Below, piece by piece: positions 9,673 to 61,995 of a stretch of 64,000 nt of DNA. Numbering within the stretch: position 1 is the first letter of the stretch; every line of letters begins with the position of its first letter. The notes under the pieces are model-generated. The model saw only the letters and a program-made list of their open reading frames with translations, was not told the DNA's origin and did not search any database. Where the stretch lies: NCBI RefSeq assembly GCF_040183065.1, contig NW_027185502.1, forward strand, positions 3,895,501-3,959,500. Reading direction: 5' to 3'. Source of the DNA: Periplaneta americana. Lineage: Eukaryota; Arthropoda; Insecta; Blattodea; Blattidae. The position numbers were made by a program, and so were the translations under genes.

Positions 9673-10189
9673 ATCATCAAGATGAAGGTGAAAGCGATTG
9701 AGTATGGCGCTCTTGAACAGGTAGTGGTTTTTTGTTTTCTATGTTGGCAGTTCAAGTCAGTCTATTCCAAATTCGGCGGAAGTCATTCAGAGCTCGTTTC
9801 TTACTACTGTTAGTACAGAAAAACGACAGGAATGAGCAGTTCTCTAAAGAAGTAGAAGCAGTAAAGTTATTCTTCAGATGTCATTTAAATACATACTGTT
9901 ACCGGTAGCCTACCTGTTTTTTATGAAAGTCTGCACTTTTCTTTTTGTTCCTGAAGCACCGGCAATACTATCTTGTTTCATTTTAGAATATTATCCAATA
10001 TAGTTATGGCTCTAGAAACTAGCATACTTGTGGAATGTCCGCAATCACACACTGTAAGTCACCACTTCTATCAACAATTTCACATTGTTCACGTATTAAT
10101 GTTTTTAAGAGACGCCTTTGATTTGTTGCACCGACGAAGACAGAGTCGAAGAAAATTGAAGAAGTTGGTATCTCTCAGTCTATGGCGCC
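9673..10189. other. Unassigned stretch flanking the P-like gene
   Basis: No confident gene. The minus strand next to 10190 may be the decayed 3' end of the P-like transposase, because the MITE at 10198-10617 inserted into its C-terminal reading frame. No diagnostic motif is visible. Confidence 0.3.
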
Positions 10190-10197
10190 AATAAAAC

Positions 10198-10617
10198 GAG
10201 TGTTGCCAACTGGACGGAAATTCCGTCAAAACTGACGGAATTTCAACGTAGTGGACGGCAAAAAAAATGGCTTTGACGGGTGACGGATTTTCTGGCGGAA
10301 ATTACGATTTACATCAACTTTTGACATTTTTAGCTGCTGTCATTTTTAATTATTTAATTTTTAGAAGATTTTACTTTTTATTTGAACAGCCCTGTCTGTT
10401 CCGTACTAAGTTTAAGAATCCCCTGTTTCATATTTCCTCGTAATCAAGTTAGATATTGACGAAATATTATATTAATCAGGATTGGTAAGTAAGTTGTGTT
10501 AAAATTTTCTTTATATATGTTGGGTCTTATTATTATTTTTTTTTTTAATTTTGACGGATTCTGACGGATTTGTAGGTGTTATACTGACGGGATATAATTT
10601 ATGTGTTGGCAACACTG
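10198..10617. mobile_element. hAT MITE, 420 bp, TSD AATAAAAC
   Basis: The inverted ends AGTGTTGCCAAC/GTTGGCAACACT (12 bp perfect) are flanked by identical 8-bp repeats AATAAAAC at 10190-10197 and 10618-10625. Eight-base duplications and C/AGTG ends are typical of hAT elements. The motif GACGG(A/G) recurs many times near both ends, like subterminal transposase-binding sites. There is no ORF, so it is non-autonomous. It interrupts the C-terminal end of the P-like gene. Confidence 0.88.
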
Positions 10618-11541
10618 AATAAAACAGCTGAACGTTATTTGAGAAAATAACTCATGCAGTCTAGGGTTAATGAAGTCGCTCTCATATTTGTCCGAAATTA
10701 AACACTGGAACACTTTATATGCAAGTACAGTCACATTTGTTACGAATTGTGTGCGCCACAAGAGTCCGCCCCTGTCTATTATTCTTAAATAATTATTCAA
10801 TTCTACTGTATAACTGGAATATTCCAATGTCTGATCACTGTATAAAACATGTCTACATCTAACACACTTTACTACTACACTTACACACTTGGCAACATAA
10901 CCTGCAATGTAGTAGGCATATATCAGCGCCATCATATTATTTTTTCTACCTCAACGTCCTCACAATCAAAAATAACATCTTCACAACCACATTCCACAAC
11001 AGCATCCAAATCTCCCCTGTAGTTACAATCATCTCCACTCCCATTTTGAAGGGATTTTTAGAAGTAGACGTTAGTTGTTCATTACATAATTTCTCTAGCT
11101 GTCTAGCATGTTCCAGTTGATTCTAGTGTCTGAAATGAGAATGATAACTCGAAAACCTCGCTGATTCAGTATGTTTAGAATTGATACTGCGAACTCGTAA
11201 AGCTTTCCTGAAGTCAAATTCCTTACAGGAAAAAGACTTTATGGTATATCTTTATTGTTTGACAGAGTGACGTAATCATAAATTCTTGCACTGTGGTAGC
11301 AGGTTGTAATTTATCTGCGAAATCCTGTACGGTGTTTTGCCACCCTTAAAAGAAATTGCAGGTTTAACATAAATGTCGTCCAATAATAAGTTAACAACTT
11401 TCTCGTGATTTTCTAATGTCTGAGCCTTTTCAGAAAGATATTTTAATGAATAGAAATTTGAGCTTTCTGGACTCAAGGAGTGGGATAGCTGTCTTAGATA
11501 ATTAGGATAAGGAGTGGTGAGCACATTGGAACTCCATAATT
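10618..11541 (-). pseudogene. P-element/THAP9-like transposase, 3' segment
   Basis: From 11541 downward the frame reads LWSSNVLTTPYPNYLRQLS, then NLLLDDIYVKPAISFKGGK, which carries the first catalytic acid region of P/THAP9-type RNase-H-like transposases (LLIDEI-Y-K...GG). Further down come YYIAGYVAKCVSVVVKCVRC, matching the conserved YIAGYVA...C..C block, and LEYSSYTVELNNYLRIIDRGGL. Between these blocks the frame is broken and the middle of the catalytic domain, with the GTP-binding insertion, is missing. The gene continues upstream across two insertions at 19370-19453 and 24053-24650. It is cut at its 3' end by the MITE at 10198-10617. It is inactive. Confidence 0.7.
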
Positions 11542-11801
11542 GTCTATAGCAGCCGTGGCGAAAATGTGATCGTGCGCCGAGCCACTGTGTAACCTGCAAC
11601 GTGCATAGCACCTATGGAGGGAGGCGGACACCCAAAGGGGAAGTGAAGCAACTGTCTGACTTATTAACGGATTTTCATTTTCCTTACGTCAAGCGCTTAA
11701 ATATAATTTTATACAGTATAAGGCTACAAACTAATGTTTAGCACGTGTAACGAAGAAAGAAATGAACAAGGAAACATAGGACACATTATCACAACCTAAA
11801 A

Positions 11802-12163
11802 TTAACTGTCTTCAGAATGTCTCTGCGATAGAGTTTCAGAATCAGGAATTAAGTCACTTACTGCCAGTCGTAGTTGATCACGAAGGTATTTGTCTGTCAG
11901 TCGTGATCTAAATTTGGTTTTTACTATTTTCATTGTTGAAAATAATTTTTCACAAATGTAAGTTGTAGCGAACATGGCTTCAACAGAGCAAGCGAAAGAA
12001 CGAAAATTCGGATATTTATTTTTTGGCAAGATTTGAAAAGTTCAACATTTGTGAAATATTTACATCTAGCTTTGATTTAACATCACATTGTAAATCTGTG
12101 AGTTTAAACTGAAGATCTAACCTCATTATTCGTGCATCTGCTGAAAAAGAATCGACGTACAGA
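11802..12163 (-). pseudogene. hAT-1 transposase C-terminus (GTF2IRD2/ZMYM-like group)
   Basis: Reading from 12163, SFSADARIMRLDLQFKLTDL and QCDVKSKLDV match the (P)F..D......LQ.EL..LQCD..LK segment of this hAT group. A frameshift near 12023 then leads into YPNFRSFACSVEAMFATTYI and CEKLFSTMKIVKTKFRSRLT, the hAT dimerisation domain with its CE..FS.MK..K...RS.L signature. The frame stops at 11802. Everything N-terminal was lost or displaced when the LINE inserted at 12164. It is inactive. Confidence 0.8.
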
Positions 12164-12505
12164 GATAATAATAATAATTATTTATTTATTTTATTTATTT
12201 ATTTAGATTATTAATGTGCAAAACAACAGCACAAGGCCAATTACTGTTTAGCACAAGATACAAAACAAAACAAAACAAAACAACAAATGATGATGAGAAT
12301 GAATGATAGAAAATGGCAGTGAGATGAAATACAATCAATAAAATAGTCTACATTAATCAATTGACCAAATTCAACAAATAAATAGTACAAATAATTATTA
12401 AAATTAAATAATATTGTAAAGATATGCAATTGACAAGAATAGTATGATACATATCTTAACAAATGGCATAATTAATAAAACTGACATAAAGACTCAAAAG
12501 ATATA

Positions 12506-15278
12506 CTACACATTAAATGGATCCAAGTTCAATCCATGCAAATTAGCATATTTAATATATCTGCAGACCGGAGAGAGAGATTTAGAATTCCTATTATAAA
12601 ACAATTTATGAAATCTTAAACCCTTAGCAGGAATACGAAGACTGATATTGCTTATGAAAGATTCACAATCAATATCACCCTTAATGGCTTTACAAAAAAA
12701 TAAATAATCAAGATCCTGACGTCTGGTGAACAAACTACCGCAATTGAAATATTTGCAATTAATCTCATAGTTATGATCGGAATTTGGTAAAAATCTATAA
12801 GAACACAAGGAAATAAATTTTCTTTGAATATTCTCAAATTTAGCCAAGTCAGTGGAAGTAATGGAGTTCCATACAACAGATGCATATTCAAGCATGGATC
12901 TAACTAACGTATAGTATAAAATTAATAAACACATAGGAGTGGAAAAAGAATAAGTTATAGATCTAATTAGACCAAGCATCCTTAATGAATGGGTATAAAT
13001 ATATTGCACATGATCATGGAAATATAATTTTGAATCAAGTAGGACACCAAGATCTCTAATACAACCTTTCTTAGTAATTACAACATTACTAAGAGAATAA
13101 TTAAATTTTAGGGAAGTAGTTTTCCGTGAGAAGGAAATAACAAAAGTTTTGGATTGATTCATTTTCATTCCATTTTCAACAGACCAATGTGAAATTCAAT
13201 TAATATCATTTTGAAGAATTTTACAATCAACCGAACTATTAATTTTACGAAAGATTTTGAGATCATCCGCAAATAAAAGGCAGCTAGAACTTATTCTTTT
13301 ACTTATATCATTTATAAATAATAAAAATAGGAGAGGTCACAATGTAGACCCTTGAGGAACTACGCATAAACTATTAAATGGAACAGAGAGAAAATTACCT
13401 AGTCGAACACAAGACTGTCTATCTGTTAAATAATTTTCAAACCAATTAACGTAGTTAGTGGAGAGACCAAAATTACTTAATTTATTTAATAAAATTTTGT
13501 GAGGAACAACATCAAACGCTTTGCTAAAATCAAAATAAATTGAGTCAATTTGACCTTGATTTTCAACTATAGGCATTATAAGATTCAGATAGGAAACTAA
13601 ATTAGTAGTAGTAGATTTCCCTCTTGTAAATCCATGTTGGGCCGAATTGATCTTATTTTTGACATAAAATGAAATGTGTTTGTGAATAATTTTTTTCAGA
13701 AAAATTGTTTAGGATAGAAATGGGTCTATAATTAGTAACACTGTTTTATTACTGTTTTTGAAAACTGGAATAATGGATGCTTCCTTCCAAAGTGATGGGT
13801 AAATTCCTGTTTTTAAACTAAGATTGAATAAAAAAGTTAAAATGGGTATGAAAATATTAGAGCAACCCTTGATTATAAAATTAGGAATGCTATCTGTACC
13901 TTTAGATTTATTAGGCTTTAGCTTTTTAATAGCTTTAGTTACATCATCGAATGTAATTTTAGGCAGGGGCAAACATTCAGTAATATTAGAATCATAAGTA
14001 ATGAAATTAGAGTTACAATTTTGTTGAACAGATTTAAATTGACTAGCAAATGCATTTGCAATTTCTTTTTCATCTGTGATGTGAACGCCATTTATTATTA
14101 ATTCAGTGGGATTGCTATTAGTTTTTCGAAAAGTTTCTACATATTTCCAAAATTTATTTGGTTCATGCTTTAGGTTATCATCAATTGATTGTAACCATTT
14201 GAATTTATCGGATTTAATCATGGCTTTAACTTGTTTTCTAAAATTAGAAAAAATTTGATAATGATGATCAGTTTTATATTTTTTGTAATTTTTATGAGCT
14301 TTATTTTTTTTCTTTATAAGCTGACGTAAATCGTTTGAAAACCATTTAGGATAGTGCGATTTTTTTAACAAAGGTGACAGGGACACAAAGAGATATAGCA
14401 TTGCATATAATTTGAGACAAGGAATTTGCAGCAGTGTTTACATCAGTAGTCTGATATATGCTAGTCCAATCATAATTGTATAGAATAGAATAAAGATTCA
14501 GATAATCACCTTGAGAATAATTTAAATAAGAACTGATTTGACAGTGTTCCGGTAACGATAAATTTACTTCAATATAAATAGAGATAGATGGATGATAAAT
14601 GTCCTCTAAAACTAGAGAGTGATCGGCAAGTTTAACTGTACTGTTATTGACATTAGTAAAAACCAAATCATGAAGATTTTTACTCGTAACGGTAGAGTTA
14701 ATTTGATTTAATCCAAGAAGGCAGGACGAGGAATATAAATCCTTAGCCTTAATTTTAGAGTAATAATGAGTGTCATTAAGATTGGAACCAGTTGACCAGT
14801 CCATACCAGGAGTATTAAAATCACCAAGGATTACTATTCTAAAATTATGAGTGTCAAGATTTTTTTCAAGAAAATTAAGATAAGATTTTAAGTGAATGTG
14901 ATCTGTATCAGGAGAGAAGTAATGGTTACCAATTAACAGATTAATACCATCAGTCATTCTAATTTCAACCCAAACGCATTCACTAATAATTTCTAAGTCT
15001 AAACACCTTCTAGTGAAAGGTTACTGGTTGCTAACGCTGTTAGGACACCACCACCTCTTTTTTTTATTAGTGTCTTCAAACAGTCTGTCTGCACGAAACA
15101 CAGTATAATTATTAGGAAATAAATTTGAATTAATAACTGACTCAGATAACCATGTTTCAGTGAGACAGATAATGAGATCATTATTACTCACTATATTTTG
15201 AAAAATTTCATCAACTTTAGTATTAAGTCCACGAACATTTTGGTAGAAAATCTCAAGATGATTAATAGAACTGAACAT
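12506..15278 (-). pseudogene. LINE ORF2: AP endonuclease and reverse transcriptase, frameshifted
   Basis: The N-terminus reads FYQNVRGLNTKVDEIF and LIICLTETWLS, which are endonuclease motifs including the catalytic E. ILGDFNTPGMDWS and the HDLVFTN region (about 14860-14640) follow. The RT fingers and palm read KSKGTDSIPNFIIKG, DFSKAFDVVPHKILLNKL and VPQGSTL. The catalytic FADD box is at 13262-13273 (CLLFADDLKIF). The C-terminal LFYNRNSKSLSP region ends at 12506. Frameshifts fall near 15070, 14990, 14350, 13720 and 13600. Stops appear after VPQGSTL (13337) and before the last segment. Motif order and wording fit the jockey superfamily; the exact clade is uncertain. Confidence 0.85.
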
Positions 15279-15299
15279 AGAAAGTGAGAGCGAACAAGA

Positions 15300-15647
15300 C
15301 TAAGACTGAGAGGCATTTCCCTGAGAATCAACAGAGTTCGAATTAGCAGAATGCGCAAAGTGCTGCTCAGGCTTTAATTTACCATAAAATGGTGCAACTA
15401 GGCAACCAGCAGGCCAAACTTCAGGTTTGTTAATGGAATCGAAATCCCTCACATCAACAGTGATGTGAAAGGAAGAATATGATTGATATTTAGTTTTTAG
15501 TTTAGTTACAACAAGAGATCTTAGCTGAAGTTGATTCTTCAGGGAGTCCTCTATACTGTTTGTGTTGACTTTGGAACTAAATCTCGAAACAAATAGAGAT
15601 TTAGTTTTAATTCTCTCAGGGGCCATTTCAATGCTACTCATGGCCAA
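15300..15647 (-). pseudogene. LINE ORF1 C-terminal part
   Basis: About 115 residues ending in a stop just upstream of ORF2. The segment YSSFHITVDVRDFDSIN followed by PEVWPAGCLVAPFYGKL matches the C-terminal domain of jockey/CR1-type ORF1 proteins (SF.V.V....D..L..P..WP.GC.V..F). The nucleic-acid-binding N-terminal part is absent because the element is 5'-truncated. Confidence 0.65.
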
Positions 15648-15654
15648 TGTTCCA

Positions 15655-15687
15655 ATAATAATAATAATAATAATAATAATAGTAATA
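15655..15687. repeat. (AAT)n microsatellite
   Basis: Perfect AAT/ATA units between the LINE 5' end and the hAT left end. Confidence 0.9.
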
Positions 15688-15689
15688 AC

Positions 15690-17798
<2,109 letters not shown>

Positions 17799-17897
17799 CA
17801 CATTGTGAAACATAAAGATAATGCAAAATATAAATTATATTAGCTTTATAAGTAAATATGTATTTACATATAAATCCTTTCCCTGGTAATAACTTTT

Positions 17898-18375
17898 CAT
17901 TCATTCATTCATTCATTTTATTCCATAGATCTTACATGAGCAATGAAGCTTTAAGATGTGGAACATGTCAACATTTTACAATATTACAATTACAATTTTT
18001 ACAAATTTTTATAGTTTTACAATTTAGTAATTTTCTACAATTTTTACAATGTTGTACAATTTTTTTTACATTTTGGCGAGATGTAGTGAGATGAAATGAG
18101 GTCCGAGGATTCGCCAAAATATTACCCCGCATTTGCCTTTTCGGTGGGGGAAACCTCGGAAAAACCCAACCAGGTAATCAAATCAAAGGGGGTAATCAAC
18201 TCAAAGGTGTTGATGCCAAGGACTCGCCATAGACCATCCGGCTTCAGTCCCACGGCTGTGGAAAACCTCGGAAGAAACCAAAGTCCAAAGGGGGATCCAA
18301 CCCAAGCCCGAACGCAGCTCCGGAACAGCAGCCCAGCGAGTCTGCCGACTGAGCTACATCGATGGCTCTACTAAA
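17898..18375 (-). mobile_element. tRNA-derived SINE (SINE-B) with (AATG)n tail
   Basis: On the minus strand the head holds an A box (TAGCTCAGTCGGCAGA) and a degraded B box (GGGTTGGATCCCC). A central segment reads ACCTGGTTGGGTTTTTCCGA, which is the same core seen in SINE-A and SINE-C. The 3' end is a run of AATG units (plus strand 17898-17918, ATTC). No clear target duplication was found. It lies inside hAT-1. Confidence 0.65.
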
Positions 18376-18419
18376 AGTATACAATACATAGCCAATCAGA
18401 TTATTAAATTTACAAACGC

Positions 18420-19020
18420 AAACGATCATTCATAAGTTGAGCTATATTATAATACAAAACAATTTAATTAAATTTAAGGTATAAACAATTCAACCAGTTG
18501 TGATATACAGAAATTGATAATACATATCATGCAAACTACTTCAAATTACAAACACAAATAATTTATCAGTAGAGCTATATAGATTACTATTCAATTTAAA
18601 GCATATACAATTCATCGGCCAAAACTATACAAATATATACAATACAAAGTAGCATACTTTCATTAAGCTATACAAATTTGTGCAATTAATATCAAGTAGA
18701 TTAATTCAATTTATAATCATAAACAATTCATCAGTTGAGCTATACATATTACCATTCAATTTACAGTAGGTCTATATACAATTCATCAGTAGAGCTACAC
18801 AGACTAGTAATCATTTTAAGAACATATACAATTCATCAGCCAAACTATACAAACATATACAATCAAATTAGTTCAATTTACAAACTTATTTTCGTTAAGC
18901 TATACAATTCATATGAAGTAGATTAATTCAATTTATAAGCTTAAACAATTCATCAGTTGACGTATACAGTACATACAATTCATCAGTTATGCTAAACAAA
19001 AAATACAATACATAATACAT
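18420..19020. repeat. About 60-bp minisatellite (AATTCATCAGTTGAGCTATAC units)
   Basis: The motif ATTCATCAG(T/C)(T/C), followed by GAGCTATAC or a close variant and an AT-rich spacer, recurs roughly every 55-65 bp about ten times. Spacers include CAATTTATAATCATA and AAGCTTAAAC. It is imperfect and non-coding. It adjoins the head side of SINE-B inside hAT-1. Confidence 0.7.
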
Positions 19021-19369
19021 AACAATACATAACACTTAACCTTTTAATGTTTCATGAGTGACATGTAGTATAATGCCGTTTATACAACCGTTTTCCTCGT
19101 AATACTTGTGAACAATTCATATATTTAATATTCTCATCATATTGGCAGAAAAAAAAAATCTTTCATTTTTGTAGAGGTACATGGTTTCGAGAGAGACATT
19201 GCGATGGTACGCCACTCGCAGGTCAGAGACAAATACAAATGGAACGGAGTTTGACTCCAGTGAGTGAGAGGGTGGGGTTGGGGAAGGCAGGAAGCAAGAG
19301 AAATGCACAGCTATCATTGTGAGCCACAATGTGCTCATGAGTCATATTTTCGCCACGGCTGGTCTATAG

Positions 19370-19453
19370 GATGGCGGATTTGAAAAATAATTCAAGGATG
19401 CCCATACTAAAATATCAATCGAGTATTTCGGCACTTTGTTGTTAACAGTGATA
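19370..19453 (-). pseudogene. P-element/THAP9-like transposase, middle segment
   Basis: A short piece between hAT-1 and element A reads KYSIDILVWASLNYFSNPPS on the minus strand. It matches the (R/K)YS.(D)...A..(I/Y)F..SP..Y segment that precedes the catalytic domain in P/THAP9-like proteins. It continues directly into LWSSNVLTTP at 11541 once hAT-1 is removed. Upstream it should join KFLKEQ at 24053 with a one-base frameshift. Confidence 0.65.
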
Positions 19454-20157
19454 CTTGCTCCCATAGGCGGAGAGAGAACCGTTTTCTTTGGGGGGGGGGG
19501 GCAAAGAAAAACCATAGAATCCCCATATAACAGAGTTATGGGGGACATCATTTACCTTCGGGGGCATGTTTCTTACAGGTACATCCATATCCGCGATATT
19601 TCGGACAGAGTTTAATAGGGCTTGAACTGTAGGTCTACTACATATTATAATAGGGCATAACTTAAAACAAACTCCTTCCTTGTTGTCTGTCGTACAGAAA
19701 TACATGCATACATCAATAAAATTACGTAACAGTGCTAACAAACTTTTTTTTATATGAAGCTTACTTTCCTGAAGATATCATAACAAATGTAAACTCTTAT
19801 TTTATTTAATCTCGTTTTTAAGTTTATACATTATACCGGAATCACTTTTCTTTTTTCTGCAATGTTGTGCAGTATGTTATTCATATTTCTCAAAGTGGCG
19901 GCCTGAACACCTGCAGACTTCTAACACATGAGTACAGGCTGTTACAAAAGAAACATTACAATGCTTTCATTCCTCAAATGAATGGAAATATTGAGAAACC
20001 CGAAATGTCCACTTTTTTACGAAATTGAGTTGCATTCCATTTTGTATTCTACACACCAGGACGCATAATTCTGAAGAGAGACACTACCAGTGGCGACTCG
20101 TGATATTTTTTGTTTGTAGATTGACGACTAATGACCAAGACAGAAAATGATAACAAC

Positions 20158-20158
<1 letters not shown>

Positions 20159-20209
<51 letters not shown>
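20159..20209. repeat. (AAT)n microsatellite
   Basis: About 17 near-perfect AAT units. Confidence 0.95.
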
Positions 20210-21776
20210 GAGCATGAGCAACTAACTTCTTGCTACAATTAAATTCTTCTAAATGATCAAATACAACTTCAGATATTCTTTCGGGAGTCCTGTCATCTGA
20301 AAGTCCTGTTAATTCTTGTGTTTTATTAGCCTATAGCTTATTTTATTTATTTTTATGTAATTTTGGTTTCGATTCATTTTATGTTTTATATTATATTATT
20401 TTAAATTATTATTTCGTTTATTCCGGTCTTTTAAAATGACCAATGAACTGCATTTAAGGAGGCTACAAGGGTACTTGAAATTCGTATTGTAGTCTCTGAC
20501 AGGGTTTCCTCACCACCACCCAGAAAGAAGGGTCGTAGTATTAGGATATACGGTCATATCCTCAAATGCGGTTAAAGGCAAGCCATACCCCGCCCTTCGC
20601 ACTCATCCCTGTCCGTAACTTCACTGCTAGAAAAAACCGTTTGCTGTAAGATATTTGGATGGTTCCTCGGAAAGTTTTCCTAAGGTCTGAGATGTGCAGT
20701 GGCGACAACTCACGACAGAAAGTGAAAGTTTGAAGAAAATTATTACATCGGGAAGCATTAAAAATGAAATCAGTAATTGAAATGTTTTCTCTCCTCAGAG
20801 GCACGAAATTAAACTGTAGGATCATCCTCATATCCTTCATGGAGGAATCGCCATCATATCCTATGCCAGAATTCAGCTCAACTTATTTCCAATATGAAGA
20901 GAAACCACACATGTTCAGGACTTGTGGGGTTTCTCAATATTTTAGATTCTTAGATTGGCAGCACCTGCATAAGATTTACCATCAATTAATTAAAAATAAT
21001 TATTATAGTTTGGTAACATTGTATATTAAATACCATTTTCCCCAGCACAGGGGAGGTTTGAAACAATCACACATTACTTCCCCATAAGAGGCCATTCCTT
21101 CCTCCCCTGCGACCGTGATTTTGGCGTTATAGAAAGGAAACTGAAAAGGACAATCAGTTCAAAAATAACTTTAAGTTACAGTTCCAGAAAGAACTGAAAT
21201 ATTGATTTTAAAGAATGGTGGCCTCACCATTATCGCAAGAATACATAGCTTAGTCTCTGGAAACTCAAGTGAGAGGAACTCCACGTTCTCAGTAAGAACC
21301 ATTTTAAACTGAATTCCATCCGTTTCATTACTCCAGTGAAAATCTCAGAGTTGTAAAAGCAAAAGTACACATAGGTAGAAGAATAATGTAACATACTTTT
21401 GTATTATCAGAACGTTCATTGATTCCTCATACCATATAAAGGAAGTTTGCCAAAAAAAACGGATTATCTGAAAAAGTCCCACAGATTCCATCCAGAAAAC
21501 GAAGGGGTGCAGGAAGTTTACATTATGATTACACATGAAAATGATCGAGTATTATAATATGACATTGATGATTTGTACCCTTTGTTCTGAAGAATGCGCG
21601 CTTCCTCCTCATGGGGGAAGAAATTTTCTCATGAAATTTCGGCTAGTGTAGGCCTGTGGGACCGATGTGCACCCAGCATCGTGATGTACTTGGGGAGCTG
21701 CGATAGGTCGCGAAAATCCGGTTTCGCAAACCAGCTTTGACAGCTGGGGGCATCATCGTGCTAACCACACGATACC

Positions 21777-22031
21777 AGTCCACACCTGTGGGGTAACGGT
21801 TAGCGTGTCTGGCCGCGAAATCAGGTGGCTCGGGTTCGATTCCCGGTCGGGACAAGTTACCTGGTTGAGGTTTTTTCCGGGGGTTTCCCTCAACCCAATA
21901 TGAGCAAATACTGGGTAACTTTCGGTGCTGGACCCCGGACTCATTTCACCGGCATTATCACCTTTATCTCATTCAGACGCTAAATAACCTAAGATGATGA
22001 TAAAGCGTCGTAAAATAACCTACTTAAAAAT
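21777..22031 (+). mobile_element. SINE-A copy 1, full length, 13-bp TSD
   Basis: It is flanked by exact ACCACACGATACC repeats (21764-21776 and 22032-22044). The tRNA-like head has an A box in GGTAACGGTTAGCG and a B box in GGGTTCGATTCCC. The core AGTTACCTGGTTGAGGTTTT follows, then CAACCCAATATGAGC, and the end region CGCTAAATAACC...AAAGCGTCGTAAAATAACC. This is the best reference copy in the window. Confidence 0.9.
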
Positions 22032-22157
22032 ACCACACGATACCTCCATTCTGGTTGGATGATCGTTCACCTCTGCTTCAGCATGTGGACGTGAGACCAG
22101 CAACTGGCTGGTCGGTCTTGGTCCTTAATGTGCTGTAGTGCCACGGATTTACTTTTT

Positions 22158-22387
22158 CATTATTATTTTATTAGGTTATTTAGCGTCTGAATGAGATGAA
22201 CGTGATAATGCCGGTGAAATGAGTTCGAGGTCCAGCACCGAAAGTTACCCAGCATTTGCTCATATTGGGTTGAGGGAAAATCACGGAAAAACCTCAACCA
22301 GGTAACTTGCTCGGACCGGAAATCGAACCCGGGCCACCTGGTTTCGCGGCCAGACGCGCTAGTGTCCACAGGTCCGCAAGTGTGGAC
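22158..22387 (-). mobile_element. SINE-A copy 2, 12-bp TSD
   Basis: It is flanked by GATTTACTTTTT at 22146-22157 and 22388-22399. Same family as copy 1 in the opposite orientation: head with the CGAACCCGGGCCACCTGG B-box side, and a 3' end in AGGTTATTTAGCGTCTGAAT. The extreme 3' end is slightly shorter. Confidence 0.88.
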
Positions 22388-23209
22388 GATTTACTTTTTG
22401 ACTTTTACCCTTTGTTGTGAATAAAAATTTAATTTTATTGTTCTAGTCTGACGTTTACTCTTTGAGTACGCATAAAAATAAATGAATATTGCATTATATT
22501 GATGATCTGTGGATGTTTCGAAATAAGTAACAATTTTTACTGAATAAGAATATAATTTTAACGTTCTATTCTGAAGCTTAAAGTTTGACTACACATGAAA
22601 ATGACTATTTTATTATATTGATGATTTGTGAAGGATTTGCAATCCTAAGTAACAATTTATTCTGAATAAAAATTTAATTTAATTGTTCTGTTTTGAAGTT
22701 TATAGGCTAGTAATACTGCACATGAAAATGATATATTGATGATTTTTTACAGTTTTGCAAAGTAACCATTTGTTGTGAGTAAAGATGTAATATTTTATTG
22801 TATTCTGCTAATTAATGTATGTTCAAAATATTGAGAAACAACACATACCCAACGCTTTTATATATTTTTTCTCGGAAAATAGATGTCGCATAGGGATGAA
22901 ATCTACTGTATATCTTTAACTTACTGTACTTAACCTCATATATTTTTTTATGGGGTCAAAGTTTTAGATAAAAGTAGCTGTGTGGTTTTTGTCGTTCCTG
23001 AAAATTTTACTTTTATGGACGTGTGTGGTTTCTCAATATCCCATTCAAATGATGTATAGAGATTATTATACATTCAGAAATTTAAAATAAAGTATATTAT
23101 AGTCCAGACACATGGTCTGAAGACATTAATTCGTCAATTAAGCACAGAAACTTAATCATAAACGAAAACAAAAAACATCTTTTGAATTAATTACTTTCTA
23201 AGTTTAATA

Positions 23210-23975
23210 TACAGGATGATTCAAAACCTCTGCGACAAACTGTGGCAAACTCTGAGGAGTGATAGGTCTCTTTTTGTTAAACAACCTATGTCGTTTCAAA
23301 GTTACCGTTGAAAATGTTTTTTTTGCGCGGGCGTACGTCAATGTATGTGAATGTGTGCACCCCTGTTTGTTTGTTTGTTTGTTTGTTTGTTGAGATGTTT
23401 GTAAGAGAAGAGAAGGGTTGTTGTTGTTTGTTTATGTTTATTGTTCAATGCCTTTTCGTTTCAGTTCTGTGTAATCATCAATTGAGAATGGATGTTTACG
23501 CGGTCTTCCACCAGTGCGCCAGGGACGAAGAGACCCATCGTCTCGAAAGCGCTGATAAAGTCGAGCAAACATTGTGTGGTGAGGGTGATTGCTGTTTTGA
23601 AACTGTTGTTGGTACATGTGGAGAGCTCTTCTTCCGTTTCCGTGAGCCTCCCCATAACACATTACCATGTCGGCTAACTCGGGAAAAGTGTAGACATCCA
23701 TTCTCAATTGATGATTAGACTGAACTGAAAGGAAAAGGTATTGAACATTAAACGTAAACAAACAACAACAACCCTTCTCGTTTCTTACAAACATCTCAAC
23801 ATTAAAACAGGGGTGCACACATTTGCCTACATTGACATACGCCCGCGCAAAAACATTTTCAACGGTAACTTCGAAACGACGCGTCAAAAGACATAGGTTG
23901 TTTAACAAAAGAGTTCCTTATTATTAGATCTGTCACCCCTCAGAGTTTGTCGCAGAGGTTTTGAATCACTCTGTA
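23210..23975 (-). mobile_element. Fold-back Tc1/mariner-like element with a DUF4817-type ORF
   Basis: The ends are TACAGGATGATTCAAAACCT and, reversed, TACAGAGTGATTCAAAACCT, with TA duplications at 23208-23209 and 23976-23977. The inverted arms are very long: about 280 bp on each side (about 23210-23490 and 23690-23975) can pair, leaving a loop of only about 200 bp. The arms carry GGTTGTTGTTGTTTGTTTA and AATCATCAATTGAGAATGGA in inverse orientation. The loop plus part of an arm encodes the DUF4817 segment. No catalytic domain remains. Confidence 0.75.
23438..23701 (-). pseudogene. DUF4817-type helix-turn-helix protein fragment
   Basis: The ATG at 23699-23701 starts a reading frame with YTFPELADMVMCYGEAHGNG, RRALHMYQQQF, then HPHHTMFARLYQRFRDDGSL and GRPRKHP. 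This is the DUF4817 pattern (F/Y...E.ADM...YGEA.GN.RRA...Y...FP.R..P....F.R..QRLRE.GS), a helix-turn-helix that forms the N-terminus of a group of mariner-like transposases in arthropods. The frame then runs into the inverted arm and stops at 23438, so the catalytic part is gone. The open frame upstream of the ATG is arm sequence and probably not translated. Confidence 0.65.
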
Positions 23976-24052
23976 TAAAGAAAAAAGGAGTTGACACAAG
24001 TTTGGGGGGCAGTGCCCCCATGCCCTCCCATAACTCCGCCTATGCTTGCTCC

Positions 24053-24650
24053 TTCAAAAACTTAACCTTACTGTATAGTCCAGGACTTTAGTCAATTTGA
24101 TCGCAGTAGTTGCGCAACAAGTTTCAAGCTAGTTCAATTTTCTCGTTTGGTGATAAATTCCAAATTTTGTAAGACTTCAAATGACTCAACAGAGTGTCGA
24201 ATTTAGACCACTTTTGCATTATCATATCTTTGCCAAGCACCCATTTAAATTTAGAACTAGCAATGGAAATGTCGTTGTTTTTGAAATATTAATTCTAAGT
24301 TCGTTAATTACTTTTAAACTCGCAATAATTTTTGGCACAACAGAAGTACTGCCAATTTTAAAAAATACAACGTTCAATATCATTTACTATTACCGTGAAC
24401 CCATCAATTTTCATATTTTCGATACTACTTTTGTACTGGTTAAAATCTGAAATCACGTCATTTGCCAACCACTTGCTAAACGCATCTTCATCTCTCGCCT
24501 CCGCTTCTTGTCATCTTTCTTCTGGTTCTTCACGTTTTTGTTTACATTCAGAGGACAAATATGATGGCTGATTTGGAAGTTTTGAAGGGACTGCATCATC
24601 TGTGAGTTTAGGTATTTTTCTGGGCACTACAAGGACACTACCGTCACTTC
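24053..24650 (-). pseudogene. P-element/THAP9-like transposase, 5' segment (THAP end and linker)
   Basis: On the minus strand VPRKIPKLTDDAVPSKLPNQ followed by PSYLSS matches the end of a THAP zinc-finger domain (L.P.AVPS.FP..P.YLS). A charged linker comes next, then KWSKFDTLLSHLKSYKIWNL and KVKFLKEQ just before element A. The zinc-binding N-terminal half of the THAP domain is not visible. Stops and frameshifts are present. With 19370-19453 and 10618-11541 it forms one gene of about 1.6 kb, now spread over 14 kb. Confidence 0.6.
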
Positions 24651-24762
24651 GAACTGCTCTTCCACATTTTAACCAGTTCAAAAGTAGGATCGAAAATATG
24701 ATAACTGTCTCTGGTAATCGACTTGGATACCACGAAACCTGCGACATGAGTAGCACAAAGGA

Positions 24763-24966
24763 TTTTTTTTATTTTACGACGCTTTATCAACATCTAGGTT
24801 ATTTAGCGTCTGAATGAGATGAAGGTGATAATGCTGGTGAAACGAGTAACGAAAGTTACCCAGCATTTGCTCATATTGGGTTGAGGGAAAACCCCGGAAA
24901 AAAACCTCAACCAGGTAACTTGTCCCGACCGGGAATCGAACCCGGGCCACCTGGTTTCACGGCCAG
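24763..24966 (-). mobile_element. SINE-A copy 3, 5'-truncated, 11-bp TSD
   Basis: It is flanked by AGCACAAAGGA at 24752-24762 and 24967-24977. The core and 3' end are intact, including CGACGCTTTATCAACATCTA at the tail. The tRNA head stops inside CCTGGTTTCACGGCCAG, so the A box is missing and this copy is unlikely to be transcribed from its own promoter. Confidence 0.88.
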
Positions 24967-24984: not shown

Positions 24985-25912
24985 TTCTGTTCACTATGTG
25001 AAGACGGTTGTGCACCACTCAATGACAGTGAAACGGTGTGTGAACTAGATCCATATAATGGAAAGACTATTATGAAATTTAAATGTGTGGAATACTATTA
25101 AAAACGTGTTAGAAATGCTCTACGCCAACTAGCAAAATCAAACAATCTAGGTTGTAGAGGGGGGCTAACGCACAAACTTATCAACAAGCTCCAGAACTAC
25201 TTTGGCATTGCTTTGAGGGCCAATACTGGCAGTGCAGAAGATACGTGTAGAGCAATCTGGGCTTCCTTGTTCCTTATCGCAGCAGATGATGACCAGCCTC
25301 TCCACGTGAAGTGTCCAGTGGGTGAAGGGAGTTGGTGTCCTTACCAAGTAGCGAAAGCCAAAGGAGAAACATGCAAACGCAAAGGACCTGGCATGAAAAT
25401 AGATATCGTAAGAGCGATTAAATCTGTATATAAGAGGTTGATTGACATAACGTTGTTGGCAAGGTGCTTACATAGAAAAACCCAAAATGTGAATGAGGCG
25501 TTCAATGGAACAATATGGAACAGGTGCCCCAAGGAAGTTGATACAGCTCAGGAAACTGTAAATTTGTGTGTTAGTAATGCTGTGTGTCATTTTATTTTTG
25601 GATTCAGAAGTAGAAATTAAAATTCTAAGGAGGATGGATGTAAACCCTGAAACAAACACCATCGCAGGAGTTGCCGCATCAATGGAAAATGAGGACAAAA
25701 GCCGCATCAATGGAAAATGAGGGCAAAGCCGCATCAATGGAAAAAGAGAACAAAAGTGCCAGAAAACATCAACACCTAAAGTTAAAACAAGGAGGAGGTA
25801 TCTGAGAGACAGAAAGAAGCTGAAACTGGACCAACATGAAGCTGCTGAAGGGGTGACATATGAAGCTGGAGGCTTCTATGCTCTGAAAGTTCGTGGCTCA
25901 TTTCCTGTAAGT
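24985..25912 (+). pseudogene. Mutator-like transposase, 3' half
   Basis: The plus strand reads LDPYNGKTIMKFKCVEYY, a stop, KRVRNALRQLAKSNNLGC, GGLTHKLINKLQNYFGIALR, then ASLFLIAADDDQ, CPVGEGSWCPYQVA, a KTQNVNEAFNGTIWNRCPK block holding the likely third catalytic acid, and SNAVCHFIFGF. After further breaks it ends in KTRRRYLRDRKK and TYEAGGF, the usual C-terminus of a Mutator-like family common in arthropods. The 5' half is absent. A relative holding the 5' half lies at 52690-53850, overlapping only around the GG(R)LT...LQNY(F/Y)G segment. Confidence 0.75.
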
Positions 25913-61194: not shown

Positions 61195-61995
61195 CTGGAA
61201 ATAGTTATAAGAGATCTGCTTTAGGACTATTCTTGCACATTTCCTTCTCTGTCTCTAGAAACATGTACTAGATACAAATCGTTTCCTTCAAAGTGTTTAA
61301 TACACACAACTGAATGCTTTGTTGGCGTGAAAATATTTCATAGTATACGAGTAGCTTCCAGCCACATAACTTATCTTTTCAGTTGGAAATTTGAGAACTG
61401 TAATGTAACACACTCACTTAAAGCACTCTAGTAATTTTTGGTACACACAGGAACACAACATTTAGGAGCCATCTGTAAATAAAAGAATATGGATGATTTA
61501 ATTTCATTTTTTAATAAAAGTCTAAACTTCTTCATTTCAGTTCTCTGAATTTATTTTTCTTAGAGGTTATGCCATTACTACGTGCTTCATCTTTTGATTC
61601 CTTTTCAGATTTTACTTTTATAATTCACTTATAGTTAATAGTTTAATTTGGTGATGTACATGTTGTCATGCTACTCTCCGTCCAAGTGGTTATGTCACAC
61701 AGTCGTCAAAACAGGGGAAATGATATGACAATTACTTACTTAATGGGGCCCTTTTCTTTAAATTATTTTAAACAGTTGTATAATATTATGTAAACTTCCA
61801 ATTCCGTACAGCAAATATTTGCAGAGAAGAACTTAACAGCTCAGCCACTAGCCCTTACAGAGAGGACAGGAGAAACGAGTGGGACGAACTGGGATGAGAC
61901 ATAACCTTTCAGCTGGACAGTACCTATTTATTCTCTTCATAGTTAGCAATCAGTGTATTACGAAGATTTCAGTTCAGAATTACACTGCCTTTTAG

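What the first reader, a model, noticed from the sequence alone, without database searches (positions are those of the whole stretch)
10198..24650. A single P/THAP9-like gene split by a five-level stack of transposons with every major border fixed
The P-like gene (24650-24053, 19453-19370, 11541-10618, minus) is interrupted by hAT-1 (TSD GTCTATAG) and element A (TSD CTTGCTCC). Element A holds element C (TSD TCAAATGA), which holds retroelement D (15-bp TSD), which holds two SINE-A copies (13- and 12-bp TSDs). hAT-1 holds a LINE, a second hAT, a SINE and a minisatellite. Removing the two large inserts makes the P-like coding motifs collinear. This yields a relative chronology of at least seven families from one locus.
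Basis: seen in the sequence. Interest (0 to 1): 0.75.

Follow-up and report, generated by a model that had tools for sequence, protein, structure and literature searches.

The report
Nested transposon stack inside P-like transposon
In a large, probably insect genome, an old P-type jumping gene was broken up by a pile of younger ones, and other copies of the same DNA stretch preserve earlier stages of the pile, so the order of the insertions can be read directly, ending with a jumping gene present in thousands of almost identical copies.

Summary
hAT-1, element A, element C and two SINE-A copies have the stated target-site duplications; only the 15-bp TSD of "D" fails (it is a phase of a 123-bp tandem repeat). 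The P-like pieces are one gene: paralogs at C10 and C16 lack both inserts and show the pieces collinear, C16 with a natural 590-aa THAP-TNP open frame spanning both insertion points. It is a decayed, 5'-truncated P/THAP9-type transposon and extends to about 9865, past a MITE. The locus lies in a multi-copy segmental duplication. Nine other copies were read, and they freeze successive states: A, C, D and two SINEs (all nine); hAT-1 (seven; two empty sites); LINE, MITE and a third SINE-A (window plus its three closest copies); a second hAT (window only). Nesting alone cannot order the A stack against hAT-1; the paralogs do, though the tree behind this is weak at one branch. The last arrival is the most striking part: 6,152 exact genome copies of a 200-bp coding block, 6,777 exact copies of one terminus, and 87 of 87 scored protein matches 100% identical and open. 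Nested clusters are a known kind. The phased series and the young hAT burst are the value.

The parts
24043..24660 (-). P/THAP9-like piece 1 (end of THAP domain and following region)
   Evidence: tblastn of the natural 590-aa ORF of L048: aa 72-277, 61% id; 88% DNA identity to L045
24660..24707 (+). inverted duplicate of 24405-24452 at the 5' truncation point of the P-like copy
   Evidence: inverted repeat I8; beyond 24660 homology to L045, L047 and L048 continues only in inverted orientation
19362..19453 (-). P/THAP9-like piece 2
   Evidence: L048 ORF aa 280-307 at 19446-19363
10663..11549 (-). P/THAP9-like piece 3 (TNP-like RNase H region and following)
   Evidence: L048 ORF aa 306-464 at 11548-11024; L045 frames at 10947-10750 and 10746-10663; PF21787 16.9 bits, below cut-off, in the window itself
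9865..10150 (-).
   Evidence: L045 C-terminal frame at 10150-9865 in three stretches, 65-80% id
10198..10617 (.). MITE, TIR SAGTGTTGCCAAC, TSD AATAAAAC (10190-10197/10618-10625)
   Evidence: empty site in 6 of 6 more distant duplicon copies
11550..19361 (-). hAT-1, TSD GTCTATAG, C-terminal hAT dimerisation region at 11802-12041
   Evidence: empty sites in C15_152.0, C13_31.24, C10 and C16
12182..15688 (-). LINE (endonuclease domain) inside an (AAT)n tract of hAT-1; exact ends not fixed
   Evidence: PF14529 27.4 bits, at its cut-off; absent in C8 and, by alignment gap, in C13_41, C22, C15_147
15690..17885 (-). second hAT (hAT-2), TSD GTAATAAC (15682-15689/17886-17893), TIR CAGGGAAMGGATTTATATG
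   Evidence: absent in 3 of 3 closest copies
15927..17519 (-). open hAT-2 transposase frame (530 aa stop to stop; ATG at 17411, 494 aa)
   Evidence: DUF659 47.1 bits; ATG position; 87 of 87 scored genome matches 100% identical
17894..19032 (.). SINE-like unit and minisatellite, absent with hAT-2 from the closest copies
   Evidence: tandem array
19462..24044 (.). element A, TSD CTTGCTCC, TIR CATAGGCGGAG
   Evidence: empty in C10, C14, C16; its left end also occurs at other sites
19982..23044 (.). element C, TSD TCAAATGA, ends ATGGAAATATTGAGAAACC and ATGGGATATTGAGAAACC; internal copies of its ends at 20918-20942 and 22826
21587..22405 (.). insert D inside the 123-bp minisatellite of C, candidate TSD TACCCTTTGTT
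   Evidence: no empty site found
21777..22031 (-). SINE-A copy 1, 13-bp TSD
22158..22387 (+). SINE-A copy 2, 12-bp TSD
24763..24966 (+). SINE-A copy 3 beside P-like piece 1, TSD AGCACAAAGGA (24752-24762/24967-24977)
   Evidence: empty site in C8, C13_41, C15_152, C13_31, C23, C15_174
23208..23977 (.). fold-back unit inside A with DUF4817 coding remnant
   Evidence: inverted repeats I2, I5, I9, I10; PF16087 36.6 bits

Best explanation
One P/THAP9-type DNA transposon copy, already 5'-truncated, was hit by element A. A was then hit by C, D and two SINE-A copies. The whole segment was copied to many places by segmental duplication, and in one branch hAT-1 inserted into the P-like part. Later, in the sub-branch leading to the window, a LINE entered hAT-1, a MITE entered the P-like 3' part and a third SINE-A landed beside its 5' end. 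Last, in the window copy alone among those read, a second hAT (hAT-2) and a SINE-like unit with a minisatellite landed in hAT-1. Each step is ordinary transposition with target-site duplication. Shown: presence/absence states, empty sites, collinearity. Inferred: that absence means 'not yet inserted' rather than precise excision, and that hAT-2 is still mobile.
For: TSDs. Natural empty sites: hAT-1 and MITE in C15_152.0, SINE-A3 in C8, single hAT-2 target in C28 and C15_171; A in L045, L047 and L048. Presence/absence matrix over nine duplicate copies. Natural THAP+TNP open frame collinear with the window pieces. p-distances to the window: 0.9% (3 closest), 5.5-6.6% (C8 group), 6.3 and 6.8% (no hAT-1), 9.4-16.3% (no A). 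The window group and the C8 group each have full support; C15_152 with C13_31 0.998 by FastTree and 100 by UFBoot when the two partly read copies are left out. A hAT-1 end lies next to piece 3 in 18 of the 22 places that hold both main P-like pieces, the window included. Ends of hAT-1 and A also occur outside the duplicon, so they are mobile families of their own.
Against: The branch joining the window group with the C8 group is short and weak: 0.789 with all 15 rows, 0.790 and UFBoot 75 without the two partly read copies, UFBoot 60 with them. C23, read only around piece 1 (about 1,000 sites), groups with the hAT-1-less copies at 0.683 / UFBoot 56 although a hAT-1 end lies at its site: a conflict I could not resolve. 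Gene conversion between copies was not tested. No empty site was found for C or D; the D empty-site probe gave only 65-72% matches, which I take as minisatellite repeats since the same copies carry D. C14 has a (TA)n tract at the hAT-1 site. C22 shows only the left end of hAT-1 and no left end of A. SINE-A divergences from an eight-insertion consensus agree only weakly (A3 3.2%, A1 4.6%, A2 5.2%).
Confidence: 0.9

Rival explanations
1. The P-like pieces are fragments of different paralogs that came to lie in order by chance or rearrangement.
For: Many P-like domain candidates exist in this genome (2,964 first-look, 150 scored).
Against: Three paralogs show the same pieces joined at the A site, and two of them (C10, C16) also at the hAT-1 site. 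Of the 40 listed piece-1 places, 22 (window included) have piece 3 at 5.6-12.5 kb in the same orientation.
Confidence: 0.02
2. hAT-1 was present in all duplicon copies and was precisely excised from C15_152 and C13_31, so it may be as old as A.
For: hAT elements move by cut and paste (established knowledge). C23, which has a hAT-1 end, falls weakly with the hAT-1-less copies.
Against: The site in C15_152 reads through one TSD with no footprint. The outgroups C10 and C16 lack hAT-1 too.
Confidence: 0.06
3. The duplicate copies are assembly duplicates or unmerged haplotypes, so the states are allelic polymorphisms rather than paralogous stages.
For: The window contig (4.1 Mb) and C28 (0.97 Mb) are short contigs; the window differs from each close copy by only 0.9%.
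Against: Two of the close copies lie 22 Mb apart on the same long contig C15, and the more distant copies differ from the window by 5.5-6.8%.
Confidence: 0.15

Closest known systems
P/THAP9-type transposons (P superfamily)
   Same: THAP domain plus TNP-like RNase H region in the uninterrupted relative L048 (Pfam)
   Different: The window copy is truncated, split and frameshifted; terminal inverted repeats of the P-like element were not looked for
Nested transposon clusters resolved computationally (REANNOTATE, PMC2672092; abstract and outline seen)
   Same: Temporal order of insertions read from nesting
   Different: Here the order is tested with natural empty sites in duplicate copies, which also orders two side-by-side stacks
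hAT superfamily DNA transposons (hAT-1, hAT-2)
   Same: 8-bp TSDs, CAG-type ends, hAT dimerisation (hAT-1) and DUF659 (hAT-2) regions
   Different: hAT-2 is present mostly as near-identical copies that keep coding sequence: 88 of 100 listed termini have the exact coding block at 798-840 bp
Recent DNA-transposon bursts: fire ant Mariner-2_DF (PMC6307670, passages seen) and sea krait Harbinger-Snek (PMC8437027, passages seen)
   Same: Low diversity and intact copies
   Different: Those passages report 857 copies with 30 identical, and 269 fully intact copies plus 2,263 intact transposase-only variants (L. colubrina); here 6,152 exact copies of a 200-bp coding block. The measures are not the same.

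Membership tests
P/THAP9-like transposon | THAP domain at the N-terminus | tested here: met
   PF05485 58.7 bits in L048, 37.8 bits in L045, cut-off 23.9; met in the relatives, while in the window copy only its end remains (24660 downward) and Pfam did not match it
P/THAP9-like transposon | TNP-like RNase H region | tested here: met
   PF21787 29.7 bits in L045 and 25.3 in L048, cut-off 24.6; 16.9 bits, below cut-off, in the window piece
P/THAP9-like transposon | terminal inverted repeats and 8-bp TSD of the P-like element itself | not tested
   ends of the P-like element were not delimited
hAT superfamily (hAT-1) | 8-bp TSD and matching terminal inverted repeats | tested here: met
   GTCTATAG; 19 of 20 terminal bases match
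hAT superfamily (hAT-1) | hAT C-terminal dimerisation region | tested here: met
   PF05699 24.6 bits, cut-off 21.4
hAT superfamily (hAT-2) | 8-bp TSD, terminal inverted repeats, unoccupied target | tested here: met
   GTAATAAC; single copy in C28 and C15_171
hAT superfamily (hAT-2) | hAT transposase domains | tested here: inconclusive
   DUF659 47.1 bits, above cut-off 34.7; PF05699 14.7 bits, below cut-off 21.4
SINE (SINE-A) | internal RNA polymerase III promoter boxes | not tested
   only TSDs and copy relations were examined

The most novel reading that the evidence does not exclude
hAT-2, the last arrival in the stack, is an autonomous hAT element caught in an exceptionally large, possibly ongoing burst: roughly 7,000 near-identical copies in a 3.2-Gb genome, about half of those sampled at the start of contig C1 with a letter-perfect transposase, and with coding copies rather than miniature derivatives making up most of those that share its terminus. 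The segmental duplicates give it an unoccupied target of bounded age.
Probability: 0.6. Interest if true: 0.72.

Novelty: new member of a known kind. Interest (0 to 1): 0.5.

Why it matters
Nested insertions are common, but their order is usually inferred from nesting alone. Here duplicated copies of the same locus act as frozen intermediates, so most steps are checked by an empty site and two side-by-side stacks can be ordered. The newest layer points to a hAT family whose thousands of near-identical copies would make a natural system for asking how an autonomous DNA transposon escapes silencing and avoids being overtaken by its own defective derivatives.

Tried and rejected
PDB sequence searches with two P-like pieces gave no relative (best E 1.3 and 0.097, unrelated proteins). 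Pfam on the window's own P-like pieces was only suggestive (16.9 bits), so the test was moved to uninterrupted paralogs. The 15-bp repeat around D was rejected as a TSD. SINE-A divergence as a clock was weak: a first consensus from three window copies was biased and was replaced by eight independent insertions. The DNA search with whole hAT-2 found nothing, not even itself; the tool says it skips very common words, so protein and pattern searches replaced it. Structure prediction was not used. Of seven paper searches (the last found nothing) only listings were seen, and I recognised none as describing this hAT family or this locus, except that PMC6307670 and PMC8437027 (passages) and PMC2672092 (abstract and outline) were opened for comparison. 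Rows dropped: six of the 3.7-kb loci (L012, L013, L018, L021, L023, L024) gave no state that I counted, probably because of orientation; they belong to copies already in the matrix. In one search, 24 of the 40 places were entered; the 16 that match only query 443-875 were left out. In the first tree the two partly read copies were left out, and the tree with all 15 rows is given beside it.
Full report
Setting. The window is G000:C21:3895501-3959500 of a 3.23-Gb genome in 91 contigs.

Borders. The TSDs of hAT-1, A and C are present exactly as stated, and those of the two inner SINE-A copies are 13 and 12 bp. hAT-1 ends match at 19 of 20 bases and A ends at the first 11. The 15-bp repeat nearest D falls in a 123-bp tandem array, so it is not a reliable TSD; TACCCTTTGTT at 21576 and 22406 fits better. 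Two further inserts have clean 8-bp TSDs: a MITE at 10198-10617 (AATAAAAC) and the second hAT at 15690-17885 (GTAATAAC). A third SINE-A copy at 24763-24966 has an 11-bp TSD.

One P-like element. DNA searches with the two main P-like pieces scored 40 places each (capped lists). Of the 40 piece-1 places, 22, the window included, have piece 3 nearby in the same orientation (in which 24 of the 40 piece-3 places were entered; the other 16 match only part of the query). Three more distant places, C10 (L045), C14 (L047) and C16 (L048), carry the pieces without element A. In L048 the alignments overlap by exactly 8 bases at both insertion points. In L045 they overlap by 9 at the A site, and the hAT-1 site reads straight through a single GTCTATAG; L045's A site differs from the TSD by one base (CTTGCTTC). 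In L047 the A site is empty and the hAT-1 site holds a (TA)n tract. L048 has a natural 590-aa open frame with THAP (58.7 bits) and TNP-like RNase H (25.3 bits) domains. By tblastn it hits the window at 24660-24043, 19446-19363 and 11548-11024 with aa 72-277, 280-307 and 306-464, in order on the minus strand. L045 frames extend the match to 10947-10663 and, past the MITE, 10150-9865. It has lost most of its THAP domain: homology to the three outgroup loci stops at 24660, where an inverted duplicate of 24405-24452 begins. With 150 scored of 2,964 first-look TNP-like candidates in the genome, this is best called a decayed P-type transposon.

A duplicated locus. Nine other copies were read over 13.5-30 kb. 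Three (C28, C15 at 148.86 Mb, C15 at 171.22 Mb) match the window along the 30 kb fetched apart from a few inserts, mostly at 97-99% identity with one stretch at 95%. The others (C13 41.47, C22, C8, C15 147.18, C15 152.0, C13 31.24) match mostly at 82-96%, with lower stretches, broken by other inserts. Over shared segments the p-distance to the window is 0.9% for the three; 5.5-6.6% for C13_41, C22, C8 and C15_147; 6.8% and 6.3% for C15_152 and C13_31; and 9.4, 14.7 and 16.3% for C10, C14 and C16; the partly read C23 and C15_174 give 4.2 and 6.5% over about 1,000 sites.

Stages. A right border, C right border, D left border and both borders of both inner SINE-A copies are found in 9 of 9 copies (A left border in 8 of 9). 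hAT-1 is present in 7 of 9 (C22 by its left end only) and empty in C15_152 and C13_31. Beyond these, the scored list has a hAT-1 end next to piece 3 in 18 of 22 paired places, window included; the four without are the two empty ones, C15_174 and C3 (not listed, which in a capped list shows nothing). The MITE is present in the three closest copies and empty in 6 of 6 others; SINE-A3 is present in the three closest copies and empty in 4 of 6 others and in the two partly read copies, while C22 and C15_147 gave no data there. The LINE is in the three closest copies and missing in C8 and, by alignment gaps, C13_41, C22 and C15_147. hAT-2 with the adjoining SINE-like unit and minisatellite is missing in 3 of 3 closest copies. 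The order is therefore P-like, then A, then C, D and SINE-A1/A2, then hAT-1, then LINE, MITE and SINE-A3 (order among them open), then hAT-2.

Weak points. The branch uniting the window and C8 groups has 0.789 support with all rows, and 0.790 or UFBoot 75 without the partly read copies. C23 carries a hAT-1 end at its site yet groups weakly (0.683; UFBoot 56) with the copies that lack hAT-1. This may be lack of sites or gene conversion; it does not bear on A being older, since A is in all nine copies read and absent in the three outgroups. Copies also carry their own inserts, for example about 870 bp at 12553-12567 in C28 and C15_148.

Independent mobility. The end of hAT-1 (2,916 first-look candidates, 40 scored at 94-100%) and the left end of A (3,556 first-look candidates, 40 places scored at 84-100%) occur also at places outside the duplicon.

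The youngest layer. hAT-2 has a 530-aa open frame (DUF659 47.1 bits). The protein search gave 87 scored matches, all 100% identical over 494 aa and open, all on C1, apparently because ties fill the list (56,070 first-look candidates). The 41-base terminus occurs exactly 6,777 times and a 200-base coding block 6,152 times, with none for the reversed control. With up to 3 mismatches the block count is 6,975, so 88% are exact; a Poisson reading gives about 0.06% divergence (inference, ignoring copies beyond 3 mismatches). Copies that keep coding sequence thus dominate those sharing this terminus; the other terminus was not examined and no second copy was read whole. Published comparisons seen in passages: fire ant Mariner-2_DF, 857 copies with 30 identical; sea krait Harbinger-Snek, 269 fully intact copies. 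Activity itself was not tested.

Verdict. The stack is real, correctly ordered and now independently phased. As a kind of thing it is known; the phased series and the hAT-2 burst lift it to moderate interest.

Noticed in passing
15690-17885: The second hAT belongs to a family with 6,777 exact 41-base termini and 6,152 exact 200-base coding blocks in the genome; 87 of 87 scored protein matches are 100% identical and open.
   Followed up: partly
1-34000: The window lies in a segmental duplication: three copies match mostly at 97-99% along the 30 kb fetched each, with more distant copies elsewhere; 14 of the 40 listed piece-1 places are on C15.
   Followed up: partly
24660-24707: The P-like copy is truncated where an inverted duplicate of its own 24405-24452 begins; seen in several duplicon copies too; origin unexplained.
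   Followed up: no
17894-19032: A SINE-like unit plus a minisatellite directly abuts the right TSD of hAT-2 and is absent with it from the closest copies; one or two events is unclear.
   Followed up: partly
10938: Four duplicon copies (C8, C13_41, C22, C15_147) have about 930 bp more at this point of the P-like part; C15_152 instead has about 690 bp at 11099-11103.
   Followed up: no
10667-11099: 16 of 40 scored genome places match only this 433-bp stretch of the P-like query at 94-95%, as if it were copied separately.
   Followed up: no
61290-61478: Another THAP-like coding stretch on the minus strand (39.7% to the L048 frame, E 1.6e-5).
   Followed up: no
25102-25620: Open frame on the plus strand with a weak Mutator-like transposase match (PF20700, 22.1 bits, below cut-off).
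   Followed up: no
L045 2509-2811: The C10 paralog has a private insert with a GIY-YIG-like reading frame (recognised by eye, no search).
   Followed up: no
G000:C23:463606-470649: This copy has a hAT-1 end beside piece 3 but groups weakly with copies lacking hAT-1; possible gene conversion or too few sites.
   Followed up: partly
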